DNA of 17,419 nt from an uncultured beta proteobacterium (GTDB taxonomy: Bacteria > Pseudomonadota > Gammaproteobacteria > Burkholderiales > Burkholderiaceae_C), in the NCBI GenBank assembly GCA_903920405.1, contig CAIXMC010000053.1, positions 1-17,419 on the forward strand, in the 5' to 3' direction. The notes beneath the pieces were generated by a model, which was not told where the DNA came from, made no database searches, and saw only the letters and a list, made by a program, of their open reading frames with translations. Of this stretch, positions 134 through 17,419 are shown piece by piece; the first letter of the stretch is position 1; every line of letters begins with the position of its first letter. The position numbers and the translations under genes were made by a program.

Positions 134-286
134 CCTAGGGTGGTTATCCAGGGTGAATTTGTTCTGAAGGCAAGTTGTTGAATTTTCGTCATTCCCGCGA
201 AGGCGGGAATCTAGTGCATTCTGGATTCCCGCCTTCGCGGGAATGACGGAACTGGCTGAAGAACCAATTCACCCTGGGTGGTTATC
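134..286. repeat. Nested palindrome carrying two dRS3-like 20-bp repeats
   Basis: Two 20-bp units of the form ATTCCC-N8-GGGAAT lie at 191-210 and 225-244 in opposite orientation, so the pair forms a long hairpin with a short spacer. An outer inverted repeat encloses them: CCAGGGTGAATTTGTTC at 148-164 pairs with the complement of 261-277 at 16 of 17 positions. An 11-bp direct repeat, GGGTGGTTATC, sits at 138-148 and again at 276-286, which could be a target-site duplication. The ATTCCC-N8-GGGAAT pattern is that of the Neisseria dRS3 element; homology here, rather than shared form, is inference. It looks like a non-coding miniature element. Confidence 0.7.
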
Positions 287-627: not shown

Positions 628-2907
628 TCAACGCGCCACCTGCTTTTGCCGCACCAATTCCTCAAACCCCGCCAAGGGGATGGGGCGACTAAACAAATAA
701 CCCTGGTAGGCCAGACAGCCTGAGCTGGCCAGAAAATCCATTTGTTCCTGGGTTTCAACACCCTCGGCAATCACGCCTAGTCCCAGGCCTTGTGCCAGGG
801 CCACAATGGTTTTGGCAATGGCGGCATCGTTGGGGTCAATCAGCACATCGCGAACAAATGCTTGATCAATCTTCAATTGATCAAGTGGCAAACGCTTGAG
901 GTAAGACAGGGAAGAGTAGCCGGTGCCAAAGTCATCCAGTGCAAAGCTCACGCCATGTGTTTTCAGGATGCTCATTTTTCTGACAATTTCCTCGACTTTA
1001 TCAACCATCATGCTCTCAGTCAGTTCGAGCTTGAGCCGTTCTGGGTTGGCACCACTGGCATGGAGTGCTGAAAGCACCTGATCCACAAAATCAGTTTGTT
1101 TGAATTGCAGCGCACTGACATTGACCGCCACCGTCAGTTCGGCCATCTCGCTTTTGTGTTCCCAAAGCGCCAGTTGCTGACAAACCATTTCCAATACCCA
1201 TTGACCCAAGGGTAGGATCAAGCCGGTTTCTTCGGTCAAAGGAATGAAATGCAATGGCGGCACAAGGCCACGTTTTGGATGTTGCCAGCGCAAGAGCACT
1301 TCAGCACCGGTGACCTGGCCTGTGTGCGTCACTTGGGCCTGGTAGTAAAGCACGAACTGTTTGGCATGCCATGCCTGGCGTAAATCGTATTCCAGCGCTG
1401 CGCGTTCTCGCACCACTTTTTCCATGCTGGGGTCAAAGAAACGCAAGGTGTTACGTCCTGCATCCTTGGATTTGTACATGGCCAGTTCAGCCTGCTTCAT
1501 GAGTTCATCCGCAGGCATCTGTGTGTCACCAAACACGGTGATGCCAAGACTGGCCGTGCTGTGATGCGAGACCCCCTCCACCTCATACGGTTCGTTGAGT
1601 GCAATGCGTATTTTTTGCGCCACCGTTTCTATGGCGTTGGCTGCCTCCACCATGTTCGCGTTCAGGCTGGCCAGTACTATCACCACAACAAATTCATCAC
1701 CGCCTATGCGGGCGACGGTGTCTCCTTCTCGCACACAGTAAGTCAGTCGCTCTGCAACCTGTTTGAGCAAACTGTTACCCCGATCATGGCCCAGGGTGTC
1801 GTTCAGGTTCTTGAAATTGTCCAGATCAATAACGACCAGCGCACCACATGTGCCGTTGCGAGTACAGGCCGTCATGGCTTGTCTGAGTCGATCCATCAAC
1901 AAAACGCGATTGGGCAGGCCTGTGAGCTGATCAAAAAATGCCAATGCATTGATTTTTTCTTCCGCCTTTTTTTGCTTGGTCATGTCGTGGTGTTCACCGA
2001 CGTAATGCGTGACGCTGCCATCATCACCTTTGACGGCTGAAACGGTCAGCCATTTGGGATAAATCTCGCCATTTTTGCGACGACCCCAGATTTCGCCCTG
2101 CCAGCCACCAGTGTCCTGAATGGTTTGCCACATGGTTTGATAAAAATGGGTATCGTGATATCCTGATTTGAGCAAGCGCGGGTTCTTGCCTACCACATCT
2201 TCAGCCGTGAACCCCGTAACTTGGGTAAATGCCTGATTGACCCGAAGAATCACGCTATGGGCATCGGTGATCACCATGCATTCCTGAGACTCAAAAGCGA
2301 CTGCTGAAATGCGCAATTGTTCTTGCGAATGCAGGCGCTCGGTCATGTCGCGAATGGCACAGACAAAAACAACGCCCTGCGCCGTGGTGACACTGCTTAA
2401 TCTGATTTCCACATCACATTCACTGCCATCTTTTTTCAGCGACTGGAAATGGACACCCTGGCTCATTTGCTGTGCCATGGAGGAGGTGGCAAACGCATCA
2501 CGACGCTGTGCGTACGCCGCCCGATAACGCAACGGTATTATTTTTTCAATTGACTGCCCCACCAAATCTGCCTCGGTGAACCCCAGCAGGTGTTCGACTT
2601 GTCGGTTGATCAGGGTGATGATGTCGTGCGTGTCGATCACCAGCATGGCATCTGGACTGGCATCAAAAATGGCGTGTTGCAGTGCTTCGCTGGCTTGCCG
2701 ATCAAAATGAAAATCAGCAGGCAATTGACTGTGGTACTGCACCAGGCGTTCCAGCAACTCTTTTGCTAATGGATTTTTGGCAACATCAAACGAGCGGGTA
2801 CCCACCAGATGAAGATCAATGTCATCGCCTTCTTTCAGGTCAAGCGCTTCTACCAGGATTGCTGGAAAACGCACTGCCAACGAATCACCCCATTTGGAAA
2901 CTTGCAT
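628..2907 (-). CDS. AbrB/antitoxin-PAS-PAS-GGDEF-EAL fusion, c-di-GMP signalling protein
   Basis: This 759-residue soluble protein combines a transcription-factor-like module with c-di-GMP synthesis and degradation domains. Residues 1 to about 75 look like a whole MazE/VapB-type AbrB antitoxin: MQVSKWGDSLAVRFP at the start, KEGDDI near 25-30, and LPADFHFDR at 62-70, the C-terminal toxin-binding signature of such antitoxins. The usual KWGNS reads KWGDS. Two PAS domains follow (about 78-195 and 199-315), with no membrane segment. The GGDEF domain (about 320-492) has an intact GGDEF at 402-406 and an RxxD inhibitory site (REGD, 393-396). The EAL domain (about 505-750) reads EVL instead of EAL, but keeps the first Glu (536), ELTES, DDFGTGYSS (658-666), KID (679-681) and AEGVE. 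The start is the ATG at 2907; the upstream Shine-Dalgarno is weak. No PIN or other toxin gene is adjacent. A regulator whose DNA binding depends on c-di-GMP state is possible but inferred. Confidence 0.93.
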   Translation of the reverse strand: MQVSKWGDSLAVRFPAILVEALDLKEGDDIDLHLVGTRSFDVAKNPLAKELLERLVQYHSQLPADFHFDRQASEALQHAIFDASPDAMLVIDTHDIITLINRQVEHLLGFTEADLVGQSIEKIIPLRYRAAYAQRRDAFATSSMAQQMSQGVHFQSLKKDGSECDVEIRLSSVTTAQGVVFVCAIRDMTERLHSQEQLRISAVAFESQECMVITDAHSVILRVNQAFTQVTGFTAEDVVGKNPRLLKSGYHDTHFYQTMWQTIQDTGGWQGEIWGRRKNGEIYPKWLTVSAVKGDDGSVTHYVGEHHDMTKQKKAEEKINALAFFDQLTGLPNRVLLMDRLRQAMTACTRNGTCGALVVIDLDNFKNLNDTLGHDRGNSLLKQVAERLTYCVREGDTVARIGGDEFVVVIVLASLNANMVEAANAIETVAQKIRIALNEPYEVEGVSHHSTASLGITVFGDTQMPADELMKQAELAMYKSKDAGRNTLRFFDPSMEKVVRERAALEYDLRQAWHAKQFVLYYQAQVTHTGQVTGAEVLLRWQHPKRGLVPPLHFIPLTEETGLILPLGQWVLEMVCQQLALWEHKSEMAELTVAVNVSALQFKQTDFVDQVLSALHASGANPERLKLELTESMMVDKVEEIVRKMSILKTHGVSFALDDFGTGYSSLSYLKRLPLDQLKIDQAFVRDVLIDPNDAAIAKTIVALAQGLGLGVIAEGVETQEQMDFLASSGCLAYQGYLFSRPIPLAGFEELVRQKQVAR

Positions 2908-2923
2908 AAGAGATTCTCACTTG

Positions 2924-3082
2924 GGATATGGTCCGCAATAAGTTCCGTATTTGGCCGTCTGAGTTGGGATGCAGTGCCAGGCGCAAATCGCGCAGTGTGG
3001 CCCAGCCACATAAGCGATTTGTAACGACGCAGTGCGCCCAAATCTGACGAGCCAAATGCGAAACTTATTGTTGACCATATCC
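2924..3082. repeat. Long intergenic palindrome of the GGATATGGTC family
   Basis: The left arm (2924-2968) begins GGATATGGTC and ends TTGGG. The right arm (3037-3082) is its imperfect complement, ending GACCATATCC; about 80 percent of the bases pair with one or two gaps. Complementarity continues inward (CAAATCGC against GCGATTTG) to a central TGTGGC-CCA-GCCACA at 2996-3010. It fills most of the 195-bp gap between pyrC' and the AbrB-fusion gene and contains no credible ORF. A half copy lies at 6891-6942 and a fragment at 13892-13909. It could be a miniature transposable or REP-like element; transcribed, it would fold into a strong hairpin between the two genes. Confidence 0.75.
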
Positions 3083-3102
3083 TTGATGTACACCTTCATA
3101 AC

Positions 3103-4410
3103 TCAACGTGCCTGATACGCCACCCGTCCCCCCACCACGGTCGCACGAACTCGTCCGGGCAGTTCATAACCCCCAAACGGTGTGTGCTTGCCTTGACTGA
3201 TCAAAGAAGATGCCTGTACCGTCCAGAAAGCGTGTGGATCAAATACACACACATCTGCCAAACCACCCACCTGCAAATGCCCGGTGCGCCCCATTCGAGA
3301 ACCCAAAGCGTTACCCAAAACACCGGCAGGGCAACAAGTGACGGTGGCCAAGGCACGCAACAGGTTCACGCCGCAGTCAAGATGCCACTTGTAGGCCAGA
3401 TTCAATAACAACTCCAGCCCGGTCGCACCTGCTTCAGCGTCTGCAAAAGGCAAGGTTTTGGCATCTTCGCCAACGGGCGTGTGATCGGATACCAGCGCAT
3501 CAAGAGTGCCATCCATCAAACCGGTGCGCAAGGCATCCCGGTCACGCTGCTGGCGCAAAGGTGGGTTCAGGCGCGCACGGCTGTCAAAGTAACCCATGTC
3601 CATATCGGTCAGATGCAGTGAATTGATGCTCACATCACAGCTCACAGCCAAGCCCTGTGATTTAGCCTGTCGCACCAGTTCAACACCGTCGGCGCTGCTG
3701 ATGCGGCACACATGCACACGCGCACCTGTTGCGCGCATCAGTTCAAAAATGGTGTGCAGTGCAATGGTTTCAGCCATCACGGGGATGCCACAAAGCCCCA
3801 TGCGTGTTGCCAAGGCGCCACTGGCAGCTACTCCCGTGCCCAGCCAGGCATCCTGTGGGCGAAGCCACACAGCGTACCCGAAGGTACTGGCGTATTGCAT
3901 GGCACGCTTCAACACCTGTGTATTGGTCAGGGCGACATCGGCTTGACTGAAAGCCACGCAACCGGCCTCCGAGAGTTCAACCATCTCGGTAATCATTTCG
4001 CCTTGCAGGTTGCGAGTCAAGGCACCCAAGGGATAGACCCTCGCCTGCTGCAATTTTTCTGCCCGAAAACGCAGCATTTCCACCAGACCAGGCTCATCGA
4101 GCACGGGGTCGGTGTCTGGCAGGCAGACCAGACTGGTGATACCGCCGGCCATGGCAGCACTCATTTCAGATTCGAGCATGCGCGCATGTTCGTTACCCGG
4201 TTCACGTAGCCGAACAGCCAAATCTACCAAACCCGGCAAGACCCAGCAGCCCTTGGCATCAATGACTTGCTTTGGCTGAAAATCAGATGCTATATTTTTA
4301 ATAGCTATCACCGCGCCACCAGCAAGGGCTACATCCACTTTTTCATCAAAACCACTGGACGGATCCATCACCCGACCGCCCTGAATTAACACACTTGTTT
4401 GATTGTTCAT
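3103..4410 (-). CDS. pyrC': Dihydroorotase-like subunit (PyrC'/PyrX) of aspartate transcarbamoylase, probably non-catalytic
   Basis: The product belongs to the amidohydrolase/dihydroorotase family (435 residues from the ATG at 4410). It should be a structural partner of PyrB in the dodecameric ATCase known from Pseudomonas and relatives. The family frame is clear: VLPGLVD near 57-63, LREPG at 68-72, SDHTP at 308-312 and a C-terminal GRVRATVVGG. The zinc-ligand motif DxHxH reads DLAVR (63-67), so both histidines are missing. The strand ending in the next His ligand reads HVCRISS (233-239), and the HAED-type site is also absent. Catalytic dihydroorotase activity is therefore unlikely. An in-frame start 30 bases further upstream (4440) lies inside pyrB and is not preferred. 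The ATG follows the pyrB stop by 7 bp, indicating translational coupling. The true dihydroorotase must be encoded elsewhere. Confidence 0.92.
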   Translation of the reverse strand: MNNQTSVLIQGGRVMDPSSGFDEKVDVALAGGAVIAIKNIASDFQPKQVIDAKGCWVLPGLVDLAVRLREPGNEHARMLESEMSAAMAGGITSLVCLPDTDPVLDEPGLVEMLRFRAEKLQQARVYPLGALTRNLQGEMITEMVELSEAGCVAFSQADVALTNTQVLKRAMQYASTFGYAVWLRPQDAWLGTGVAASGALATRMGLCGIPVMAETIALHTIFELMRATGARVHVCRISSADGVELVRQAKSQGLAVSCDVSINSLHLTDMDMGYFDSRARLNPPLRQQRDRDALRTGLMDGTLDALVSDHTPVGEDAKTLPFADAEAGATGLELLLNLAYKWHLDCGVNLLRALATVTCCPAGVLGNALGSRMGRTGHLQVGGLADVCVFDPHAFWTVQASSLISQGKHTPFGGYELPGRVRATVVGGRVAYQAR

Positions 4411-4417
4411 TTTGATC

Positions 4418-5380
4418 TCAGGCTTCGTTGCCCGCCACAATGCTCATCACCGCCATGCGCACAGCAATGCCAAAAGTGACTTGCGGCAAGATGACGCTCT
4501 GGCTGCCATCGACCACTGCCGAATCAATTTCAACGCCCCGATTGATGGGGCCGGGGTGCATCACGATGGCATGGGGCTTGGCCAACTGCAGTTTGTCTTG
4601 CGTTAAGCCAAAACTTTTGAAAAATTCCTGGCTGGAAGGCAGCAAAGCACCGCTCATGCGTTCATTTTGCAAGCGCAGCATGATGATGACATCGCAACCC
4701 TTGATACCCTCGGTCAGGGTGTGGCACACCCGAACGCCCATGGGCGCCACATCATCTGGCACCAGGGTTTTGGGGCCGACTACGCGAACCTCGGCACATC
4801 CCAATGTGGTCAGGGCATGAATGTCCGAGCGTGCCACCCTTGAATGCAAAACGTCGCCCACAATGGCCACGGTCAAATTGGAAAAATCTCCCTTGTAGTG
4901 CCGTATGGTGTACATGTCCAACAAAGCCTGTGTGGGGTGAGCGTGACTACCATCACCCGCATTGATAACGTGAACATGGGGTGCGACGTGCTGGGCAATC
5001 AAATACGGGGCACCAGACTCGCTGTGGCGCACCACAAAAATATCAGCAGCCATGGCGCTCAAGTTGGCAATGGTGTCAAGCAGAGATTCACCTTTGGATG
5101 CCGATGATCGGGCAATATCCAGGTTAATGACATCGGCACTCAGCCGTGTGGCGGCAATTTCAAAGGTGGTTCGGGTTCGTGTGGAATTTTCAAAAAACAA
5201 ATTAAAAACACTTTTGCCACGCAGCAAGGGCACTTTCTTGACCTCTCGGTTGTTGACGGAAACAAAGTTGGTGGCAGTATCGAGCACATGGGTCAAAATG
5301 CTTTTGGGCAGACCCTCTGTGGAGAGCAGATGGATGAGTTCACCCTGTTGATTAAGCTGCGGGTTGCGTTGGTTTAGCAT
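4418..5380 (-). CDS. pyrB: Aspartate carbamoyltransferase catalytic subunit
   Basis: The enzyme condenses carbamoyl phosphate with L-aspartate to N-carbamoyl-L-aspartate, the committed step of pyrimidine synthesis, in the cytoplasm. The carbamoyl-phosphate site STRTR lies at residues 66-70, the SASKGES loop near 93-99, HPTQALLD at 148-155, and [12 protein letters not shown] in the C-terminal third. At 320 residues the length is normal for class A ATCases of Burkholderiales. The ATG at 5380 is chosen; an in-frame TTG at 5386 would add only two residues. The start overlaps the end of pyrR by 7 bp, so translation is probably coupled. The following gene encodes the dihydroorotase-like partner needed for the holoenzyme. 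No PyrI regulatory subunit is present, as expected for this class. Confidence 0.97.
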
Positions 5381-15798: not shown

Positions 15799-17419
15799 TT
15801 AATTCTCTTGAATAAAGAAACCCTCACCCGCCATTTTGGCTTTGTGCTTGGCCCGAGCAGCGATGGATGCCACTTGTTCAGCAGTTGCCAGTTCACCGCC
15901 ACGAACCTTGACTGCACCGATGGACAGCGTGGTCAATGGGAAAAATCTGGGAACACCATAGCGGTCATCTGCATGAATGCCACCGGCCGCACGAGCGGGT
16001 TCATCAAACAATGCGATGGCAAGTTCTGCAAATTTAGCAATGATGTTCTGGCATTGCTGATGCCAGTCAGTACTTTGATACAAAATAATAAAGTCATCAC
16101 CGCCCACATGCCCGACAAAATCGCGCTGAGGATCGCAATGTGCTACGGCCAGTCGCGCCAGCAAGCGAATCATTTCATCTCCGCGCCAGTAACCGTACTG
16201 ATCGTTAAAGGGCTTGAAATTGTTCAGATCAGCATAGCAGGCTACAAAATCCACACCACTGCTCAGCAACCGATCAATGTGCTGGTTGATTGGAATATTG
16301 CCTGGTAAAAAGGTGAGTGGATTGGCGTGGCGGGCTGCCTCTATGCGTGTTTCAGTGACGGAGCGAACCAATTGATCGCCTGTACCCAAACCCATATACC
16401 GACCGTTATCCGTGACAATAAATCCATCCGTCAGGTAGCGTTGATCGTCAGATGTCAGGATGCCGATCAAATCATCAACGTTGTGTCGGCGCTCAATCAA
16501 TCGGGGCGCCAAATTGGCATGCACCAGACAGGGTTTTTTGCCCCATACTTCCCTGTAATACAGTTTGCAGTATGCGTTCATGAAGACTGCCCGGTTGATG
16601 ATGCCCACCGGACGGTTGCCATCAATGACAGCTACAGCATGGAGTTTGCTATGGCTGATAAACAGGGCTGCCAACTCATTATTGGTAGTGACCAATTCCA
16701 CTGACGGCGCATCAATGACCGCAAAACGACTCATAGCTCCAGCGCTTGATACCCTTCGTAACTCAGGCAAGACCGATACCCTTCGGTCACGCATGGCATT
16801 CTGTGCCAGGGACTCGATGTGTACAAAGGGTATCTGGTTTGGCCGACCCAAAAAATAGCCTTGCCCAAAGGGGATGCCAAGATCACGCAAAACGCGCATG
16901 TCGTCTTCCGTCTCAATGCCTTCAGCCACCAATGCTGTGTCGAAAATAGCCGCAATTTGTTGTATGGCCTGAATGGTTTTGATCTTGTCCGCATATTGAG
17001 AAATATTTTGGGTAAAGTATTTGTCGATCTTCACAAACTCTGGTTTGAGTTGGGACCAGAGCCGCAAACTTGACCTGCCATCACCAAAATCATCGAGCGC
17101 AAGCGACACACCCGCAGAGCGTATGTCAGATATTACGCAGGCCAGGTAGTCCATGTCCTCCACCCGTTCGTACTCGGTGATCTCAAGAACCAACATCCGT
17201 GGCGCAACACCAAAATGACCCATCAAGGCGATCAGCGCTTCGCTTCCTCGGTGCTTTAAGACTTGAATCAAAACATCAGCGCTGATATTGACAAACAACC
17301 GACCTGATTCGTTGTATTCGCCCCAACGTGCCAGTGCCAGAGTGACGCAGTGGTTCTCAAACTCAAAATTCAGATTTTCTTGAGCTGCGGCAGCCAACAA
17401 GGCATCAGGTGAATGAAAT
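15799..17419 (-). CDS. EAL-CBS-GGDEF c-di-GMP signalling protein (5' end beyond window)
   Basis: The reading frame is open to the window edge and the start of the EAL domain, including the EAL motif, is missing, so this is a partial gene. Counting from 17400, VNIS (37-40), LEITE (72-76), LALDDFGDGRSSL (100-112), FVKIDKYF (122-129), VAEGIET and GQGYFLGRP give a phosphodiesterase domain with all visible catalytic residues. A pair of CBS domains fills about 224-350. The C-terminal GGDEF domain (about 360-530) has DLNNFKPFNDQYG and GGDDF at 433-437, an Asp in the position of the signature Glu. The RxxD inhibitory site is absent (PQRD). A net phosphodiesterase seems likely, with CBS domains sensing adenosine nucleotides, but that is inference. 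It ends 7 bp before phoR. Confidence 0.92.
   Translation of the reverse strand, partial: FHSPDALLAAAAQENLNFEFENHCVTLALARWGEYNESGRLFVNISADVLIQVLKHRGSEALIALMGHFGVAPRMLVLEITEYERVEDMDYLACVISDIRSAGVSLALDDFGDGRSSLRLWSQLKPEFVKIDKYFTQNISQYADKIKTIQAIQQIAAIFDTALVAEGIETEDDMRVLRDLGIPFGQGYFLGRPNQIPFVHIESLAQNAMRDRRVSVLPELRRVSSAGAMSRFAVIDAPSVELVTTNNELAALFISHSKLHAVAVIDGNRPVGIINRAVFMNAYCKLYYREVWGKKPCLVHANLAPRLIERRHNVDDLIGILTSDDQRYLTDGFIVTDNGRYMGLGTGDQLVRSVTETRIEAARHANPLTFLPGNIPINQHIDRLLSSGVDFVACYADLNNFKPFNDQYGYWRGDEMIRLLARLAVAHCDPQRDFVGHVGGDDFIILYQSTDWHQQCQNIIAKFAELAIALFDEPARAAGGIHADDRYGVPRFFPLTTLSIGAVKVRGGELATAEQVASIAARAKHKAKMAGEGFFIQEN

What the first reader, a model, noticed from the sequence alone, without database searches (positions are those of the whole stretch)
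628..2907. Antitoxin module fused to a c-di-GMP synthase/phosphodiesterase
Residues 1-75 reproduce a complete MazE/VapB-type AbrB antitoxin, from KWGDSLAVRFP through KEGDDI to the toxin-binding tail LPADFHFDR, directly followed by PAS-PAS-GGDEF-EAL in one uninterrupted frame. AbrB-type modules bind palindromic operators and, through such tails, PIN or MazF toxins. No toxin gene is adjacent. The fusion could be a c-di-GMP-responsive DNA-binding protein or an antitoxin whose activity follows second-messenger state. I know of no described system of this architecture. The motifs are seen; the function is inference.
Basis: partly seen in the sequence, partly recalled or inferred. Interest (0 to 1): 0.8.

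Follow-up and report, generated by a model that had tools for sequence, protein, structure and literature searches.

The report
Antitoxin domain replaced an enzyme's sensor
In a small group of related bacteria, a gene for an enzyme that handles the signal molecule c-di-GMP has lost its membrane sensor and carries instead a complete toxin-neutralising (antitoxin) domain, which now seems to be changing almost freely.

Summary
One 759-aa ORF (window 2907..628, minus strand) starts with a MazE/VapB-type AbrB domain and continues as PAS-PAS-GGDEF-EAL. It is no assembly fault: genome G080 and protein clusters P0002 and P0003 carry it too. Residues 1-70 belong to a VapB family whose stand-alone members precede a PIN (VapC) gene in 42 of 45 loci. 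So the antitoxin replaced the sensor in place, at a shared LQA(N/S)E stretch. Residues 1-70 give dN/dS 0.73 (95% 0.33-2.3), against 0.15-0.21 for PAS2, GGDEF and EAL and about 0.05 for stand-alone VapBs. Most likely this is now a cytosolic c-di-GMP enzyme with a domesticated, loosely constrained dimeric cap. DNA binding is not excluded: residues 1-16 are unchanged in all four fused sequences.

The parts
628..2907 (-). fused ORF, 759 aa: VapB/AbrB domain + PAS-PAS-GGDEF-EAL
   Evidence: same fusion in G080 (L002, L016, L069), P0002, P0003
2698..2907 (-). residues 1-70: VapB-type AbrB antitoxin (hairpin 1-16, tail LPADFHFDR 62-70)
   Evidence: PF04014 over cut-off; tree inside stand-alone VapBs of the genus; fold model and PDB matches, modest scores
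2686..2697 (-). junction, residues 71-74 (QASE), in a stretch LQA(N/S)E that both parents share
   Evidence: DNA of window, G080, G006 and 13 stand-alone vapBs printed side by side; alignment A2
2323..2697 (-). PAS 1 (residues 71-195)
   Evidence: boundaries approximate
1963..2322 (-). PAS 2 (residues 196-315)
   Evidence: boundaries approximate
1450..1941 (-). GGDEF domain (residues 323-486); GGDEF at 402, RxxD (REGD) at 393
682..1386 (-). EAL domain (residues 508-742), EVL variant; motif strings found, their meaning recalled
3103..4440 (-). pyrC-type dihydroorotase gene directly upstream, same strand
   Evidence: ORF; orthologue next to the same enzyme in G080 and G006; gene name from own knowledge
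2920..3085 (.). about 160-bp palindromic repeat element between pyrC and the fused ORF, absent at this site in G080
   Evidence: inverted arms 2924-2955/3051-3082; many copies per genome; G080 lacks it here

Best explanation
In the common ancestor of a small clade, the 5' part of a pyrC-linked gene for a membrane-anchored sensor (TM-Cache-type-TM) PAS-PAS-GGDEF-EAL enzyme was replaced in place by the coding sequence of a vapB, without its operator and without vapC; the break lies in a short LQA(N/S)E stretch that both genes share (origin: shown by comparison). The product is a cytosolic c-di-GMP synthase/phosphodiesterase, with the motif strings of both catalytic domains present, whose membrane input is gone. 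The VapB part supplies the start of translation and, by inference from the AbrB/MazE fold, a dimeric cap that holds the PAS helices and the GGDEF/EAL domains together. Neither toxin neutralisation nor operator binding appears to be kept under strong selection.
For: Fusion in G000, G080, P0002 and P0003 (P0003 and G080 are near-copies, so about three lineages). Stand-alone parent identified; the four fused domains form one clade (100/97) inside a supported group (95/87) with the genus VapBs. Enzyme parent: fused enzymes form one clade (100/100) grouped with P0024 and P0048 (100/99), both with two N-terminal hydrophobic segments and a sensor region alike in the two (48% over 317 aa) that scores as dCache_1 in P0024, 44.6 bits against a cut-off of 45. 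Synteny: the enzyme lies directly behind pyrC on the same strand in window, G080 and G006, and in none of 28 other pyrC loci read, of 81 genomes with a match (3 of the 28 end within 225 nt of pyrC). No operator upstream of the fused gene. No close VapC. dN/dS 0.73 in residues 1-70 vs 0.15-0.21 in PAS2, GGDEF and EAL; 5-7 of 49 stand-alone-invariant columns altered vs 0-2 in 11 leave-one-out controls. 386-bit match to solved GGDEF-EAL chain 4rnh over residues 317-749.
Against: The dN/dS rests on one pair of genomes: 19 differences, 95% codon bootstrap 0.33-2.3; the stand-alone figure uses dS that is mostly saturated. Against the whole rest of the protein the contrast is only p 0.044, as PAS1 is loose too (0.58). 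Residues 1-16 show no change in four fused sequences (P 0.004 if the 18 variable positions fell at random, chosen post hoc), and codons 1-16 no nucleotide change between window and G080, so a function of the hairpin may survive. In 3 of 4 fused sequences the tail LPADFHFDR is intact. Dimerisation, enzyme activity, solubility and co-transcription with pyrC are inferred; full-length model confidence is below 50 in residues 49-73.
Confidence: 0.62

Rival explanations
1. c-di-GMP-linked transcription factor: the AbrB hairpin still binds palindromic DNA and the GGDEF/EAL part senses or sets c-di-GMP at the bound promoter.
For: AbrB-type domain; residues 1-16 invariant in the four fused sequences; D8 also occurs in rhizobial VapBs that have palindromes upstream; SpoVT is an AbrB-type regulator with a GAF-like domain (PMC5061766, passages).
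Against: Operator ATATACA-N9-TGTATAT with up to 1 mismatch: one place per genome, at the 3' end of a glycosyltransferase-like frame; none in the window with up to 3 mismatches; N8D lies in the WGNS motif that is invariant in 24 stand-alones (11 genus and 13 of 20 family loci, those without gaps). A changed specificity or N10 spacing was not searched in the genomes.
Confidence: 0.14
2. Orphan (anti-addiction) antitoxin: the retained tail neutralises VapC toxins of incoming vapBC modules, with the enzyme as passenger or stabiliser.
For: Tail identical to stand-alones in 3 of 4 fused sequences; stand-alone vapB of this family with a PIN gene behind it in 12 of the other 88 genomes of the genus at E <= 1.8e-28; orphan antitoxins are discussed as anti-addiction (PMC7354431, passages).
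Against: RGR before the tail changed (R61Q in all four; R59H and G60S in the window), L62W and F68L in P0002; residues 37-70 evolve at dN/dS 0.88.
Confidence: 0.12
3. Pure relic: residues 1-70 are a non-functional leader kept only because they carry the start codon.
For: dN/dS not distinguishable from neutral (14 of 19 changes non-synonymous by rounded count; 77% of sites are non-synonymous); operator lost.
Against: Frame open in all four; the AbrB strands are still predicted; no change in residues 1-16.
Confidence: 0.1
4. Assembly chimera or binning artefact.
For: Draft genome in 458 contigs, about 90% complete.
Against: Same junction in G080 and in two further clusters with 10 member sequences, 92-95% identical to the window protein.
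Confidence: 0.01

Closest known systems
VapBC with AbrB-type VapB (e.g. R. felis VapBC2 3zvk, C. crescentus VapBC1 5l6l, Shigella VapBC 3tnd)
   Same: Residues 1-70 are a homologous AbrB-type antitoxin with a tail; stand-alone relatives precede PIN genes.
   Different: No vapC, no operator, fused to an enzyme, relaxed constraint.
E. coli MazE (1mvf, 1ub4, 2mru)
   Same: Best PDB sequence match and among the best fold matches.
   Different: MazE partners MazF; here the relatives partner PIN proteins. The NCBIfam MazE cut-off is not reached.
Membrane-bound sensor-PAS-PAS-GGDEF-EAL enzymes (P0024, Ca. Symbiobacter P0048)
   Same: Orthologous enzyme half and, for P0048, the same place behind pyrC.
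   Different: N-terminal TM-sensor-TM replaced by VapB; no hydrophobic segment left at the N-terminus.
SpoVT (AbrB + GAF-like domain)
   Same: AbrB-type domain joined to a sensor-type domain (PMC5061766, passages).
   Different: SpoVT is a sporulation regulator without GGDEF or EAL (own knowledge); alike only in the AbrB part.
Toxin and antitoxin in one polypeptide (PMC4826407, start of abstract in a listing only)
   Same: Antitoxin in a multi-domain protein.
   Different: There the partner is the toxin; here it is a second-messenger enzyme.

Membership tests
VapB-type (AbrB) antitoxin | AbrB/MazE N-terminal domain | tested here: met
   PF04014 over cut-off; clade with stand-alone VapBs
VapB-type (AbrB) antitoxin | partner vapC (PIN) gene adjacent | tested here: not met
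   no PIN match on the window's contig C53; no close VapC in G000 or G080
VapB-type (AbrB) antitoxin | autoregulatory palindromic operator upstream | tested here: not met
   seen by eye in 12 of 12 genus loci L017-L028, not before the fused gene in window and G080
VapB-type (AbrB) antitoxin | neutralises a PIN toxin | not testable with these tools
   needs co-expression
MazE (NCBIfam PRK09798) | curated score cut-off | tested here: not met
   27.2 bits, cut-off 113
GGDEF-EAL c-di-GMP enzyme | GGDEF and EAL domains with catalytic motifs | tested here: met
   (motif meaning recalled)
GGDEF-EAL c-di-GMP enzyme | synthesis or hydrolysis of c-di-GMP | not testable with these tools
   needs assay
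Membrane Cache-type sensor GGDEF-EAL enzyme | N-terminal TM-sensor-TM | tested here: not met
   no hydrophobic segment at the N-terminus of P0001; two in P0024 and P0048
AbrB-family transcription regulator (SpoVT-like) | specific DNA binding at target promoters | tested here: inconclusive
   one near-match operator per genome, at the end of a coding frame; binding itself not testable

The most novel reading that the evidence does not exclude
The VapB cap is still a DNA-binding dimer: the hairpin (residues 1-16, unchanged in four fused sequences, with the derived D8) reads a new operator, and c-di-GMP or GTP bound by the attached GGDEF-EAL part sets its affinity. That would be a one-protein c-di-GMP switch made by capture of an antitoxin.
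Probability: 0.12. Interest if true: 0.82.

Novelty: new variant of a known kind. Interest (0 to 1): 0.52.

Why it matters
It shows a toxin-antitoxin gene as raw material for signalling proteins: an antitoxin reading frame displaced a membrane sensor in place, turning a probable membrane receptor into a probable cytosolic enzyme. Parents, locus and junction can be read from living relatives, so the effect of swapping an input domain on a c-di-GMP enzyme can be tested directly (before: G006 type; after: this type; donor: stand-alone VapB).

Tried and rejected
Assembly artefact: rejected, further copies in G080, P0002 and P0003. MazF partner: no reason for it, relatives precede PIN genes. Other fusions of this VapB family: among proteins of about 417-1328 aa in the 5.8-billion set only P0002 and P0003 at E <= 1e-3 (2 hits of 88 candidates); in genomes, own and G080 among 32 genus genomes with a match (89 searched), own alone among 21 family genomes with a match (399 searched) and own alone among 29 order genomes with a match (399 searched; judged by open frame, at most 161 aa in the rest). 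The family and order samples overlap in part with earlier ones. Long open frames at G086, G087 and in family loci are stop-to-stop extensions upstream of the VapB start; the VapB frames themselves are 76-84 aa (G086:C142 is cut by the contig end). Fusions of other AbrB families to GGDEF/EAL were not searched. The inverted repeat upstream as an operator: rejected, it is a repeated element missing at this site in G080. Rfam: no match in the window at gathering scores. Literature searches for an AbrB/VapB-GGDEF fusion found none (listings and starts of abstracts only; one search listed 15 of 128 and 8 of 10; PMC7824862 and PMC9800504, which hold all terms, were not opened). Opened by passages only: PMC4803016, PMC7354431, PMC5061766. 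A first enzyme tree used gapped rows by mistake and is replaced. One search read the wrong strand. The scripts (upstream part) found nothing because of a too-short test string and were repeated.

Full report

Is it real. Two protein clusters (P0002, 6 members; P0003, 4 members) and genome G080 carry the same fusion; P0002 and P0003 are 95% and 92% identical to the window protein, and the N-domains are 82-83% identical. G080:C203 has the contig number and length of L002 (Loclat_bin-01332) and the same letters where both were printed. P0003 is a near-copy of G080. So it is not an assembly fault. Residues 1-72 have no second match in G000.

Antitoxin parent. I read 47 loci that hold a close relative of residues 1-72. 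Two are the G080 fusion. The other 45 are stand-alone frames of 76-84 aa, and 42 of these have a frame with a PIN-type start just downstream by a simple text rule; the three misses are L007 (where the rule picked a different VapB), L129 and L130. Some loci are the same place twice (L003 and L024) or near-copies (L026, L027). Upstream of the stand-alone genes stands a palindrome GATATACA-N9-TGTATATC, seen by eye in 12 of 12 genus loci L017-L028 with a few mismatches (L020 has N10; L025 is imperfect) and in most of the 20 family loci L111-L130 (not L112, poorly L130). Rhizobial relatives have other palindromes. In a tree of 46 domains the four fused ones form one clade (100/97) in a supported group (95/87) with the 11 genus VapBs, L004 and L111. 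This places the donor in or near the same genus pool; 76 columns resolve no more.

Enzyme parent. A search with residues 68-330 gave 6043 hits, 120 listed. By identity over the whole stretch the nearest non-fused protein listed is P0024 (69%, 99% covered); by score other multi-PAS proteins rank above it. In a tree of 36 enzyme halves the fused four are one clade (100/100) grouped with P0024 and P0048 (100/99). P0048 is named Ca. Symbiobacter mobilis and its contig length equals that of G006. P0024 and P0048 have two hydrophobic segments around a sensor region that is 48% identical between them and scores as dCache_1 in P0024 at 44.6 bits against a cut-off of 45 (not listed for the G006 protein). 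P0001 has no such segment at its N-terminus.

Same locus. In G006 that gene starts 62 nt behind pyrC on the same strand. In G080 the fusion starts 33 nt behind pyrC, and in the window the same gap is widened by a repeat element. pyrC was found in 81 of 89 genus genomes. I read 30 of these loci: only window and G080 have this enzyme on the same strand behind pyrC; three others have 39-45% matches on the opposite strand; three end within 225 nt of pyrC. So the fused gene is best read as the orthologue of the G006 gene, with its roughly 340-residue N-terminus exchanged for 70 residues of VapB.

Junction. VapB genes read ...FDR-LQANE... (or LEAN), the G006 enzyme reads ...EFLQASEALQ..., the fusions read ...FDR-QASEALQ.... 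At DNA level vapB of L025 has CAAGCCAACGAA and the fusion CAAGCCAGCGAA. A break in this short shared stretch is the simplest reading (inference).

Has it kept antitoxin function? The genus VapC used as query finds in G000 a best match of 40% identity at C343, which follows a frame ending ...GYHFDRWDANAR that is a different antitoxin by eye, and in G080 nothing better than E 0.26. G000 is about 90% complete and G080 97%. G000 has 14 PIN matches (12 over cut-off) and 8 MazE-type matches (7 over cut-off, the fusion among them), so cross-talk cannot be excluded. Between window and G080, residues 1-70 have 13.5 non-synonymous and 5.5 synonymous differences, dN/dS 0.73, codon bootstrap 0.33-2.3. PAS1 gives 0.58, PAS2 0.15, GGDEF 0.21 and EAL 0.18. 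N-domain against PAS2-EAL: Fisher p 0.011; against all the rest p 0.044, with rounded counts. Ten genus VapBs, compared in pairs with undefined pairs left out, have median 0.05, mostly with saturated dS. Of 49 columns invariant in 11 genus VapBs, the fused sequences change 5-7; each stand-alone left out in turn changes 0-2. Against free decay: residues 1-16 are the same in all four, and codons 1-16 have no nucleotide difference between window and G080. The post-hoc P for the former is 0.004.

Has it kept DNA targets? The pattern ATATACA-N9-TGTATAT with up to one mismatch occurs once in G000 and once in G080, at the same place at the 3' end of a glycosyltransferase-like frame; the reversed control gives none. 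About 0.4 places per genome are expected by chance (own rough estimate, even base use). N10 spacing and other palindromes were not searched genome-wide.

Mechanism. Shown: the architecture, its conservation, both parents, the shared locus, the GGDEF (402), RxxD (393) and EAL-domain motif strings (meaning recalled). Inferred: activity, dimerisation through the AbrB fold (two molecules form the fold: PMC4803016, passage; GGDEF domains must pair to make c-di-GMP: PMC7825114, start of abstract in a listing), loss of the membrane location, transcription with pyrC. I commit to a cytosolic c-di-GMP enzyme with a domesticated VapB cap.

Known or new. Each half is ordinary. The combination was not found in the searches of the held library. 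I call it a new variant of a known kind: a GGDEF-EAL enzyme with an input-side domain that I did not find described.

Noticed in passing
window 2920-3085: About 160-bp palindromic repeat element (arms GGATATGG.../...CCATATCC) at some 40 places in each of G000 and G080 (85 and 78 matches, both orientations of the palindrome counted; only 40 of 282 and 284 first-look candidates were scored), none in G006; it lies upstream of the fused gene in the window and is absent at that site in G080.
   Followed up: partly
window 184-251 and 490-601: Two other inverted repeats (CGTCATTCCCGCGAAGGCGGGAATC and CGTTCCCACGCTCCTGCGTGGGAACG types) downstream of the fused gene; sequence like the second recurs near window 7157 and several times in the G080 contig.
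   Followed up: no
L006, L008-L012, L014 (Bradyrhizobium), upstream of vapB: Rhizobial members of this VapB family have a different tandem palindrome, about ATGATATCAT-N5-ATGATATCAT, so operator specificity seems to have changed within one VapB family (by eye).
   Followed up: no
window 15799-17418: A second c-di-GMP-type protein, EAL-like part followed by a GGDEF-like part, cut by the window end (by eye).
   Followed up: no
L004: A bin labelled Chlorobiaceae holds a VapBC that groups with the genus VapBs but lacks the usual operator: mis-binning or transfer.
   Followed up: no
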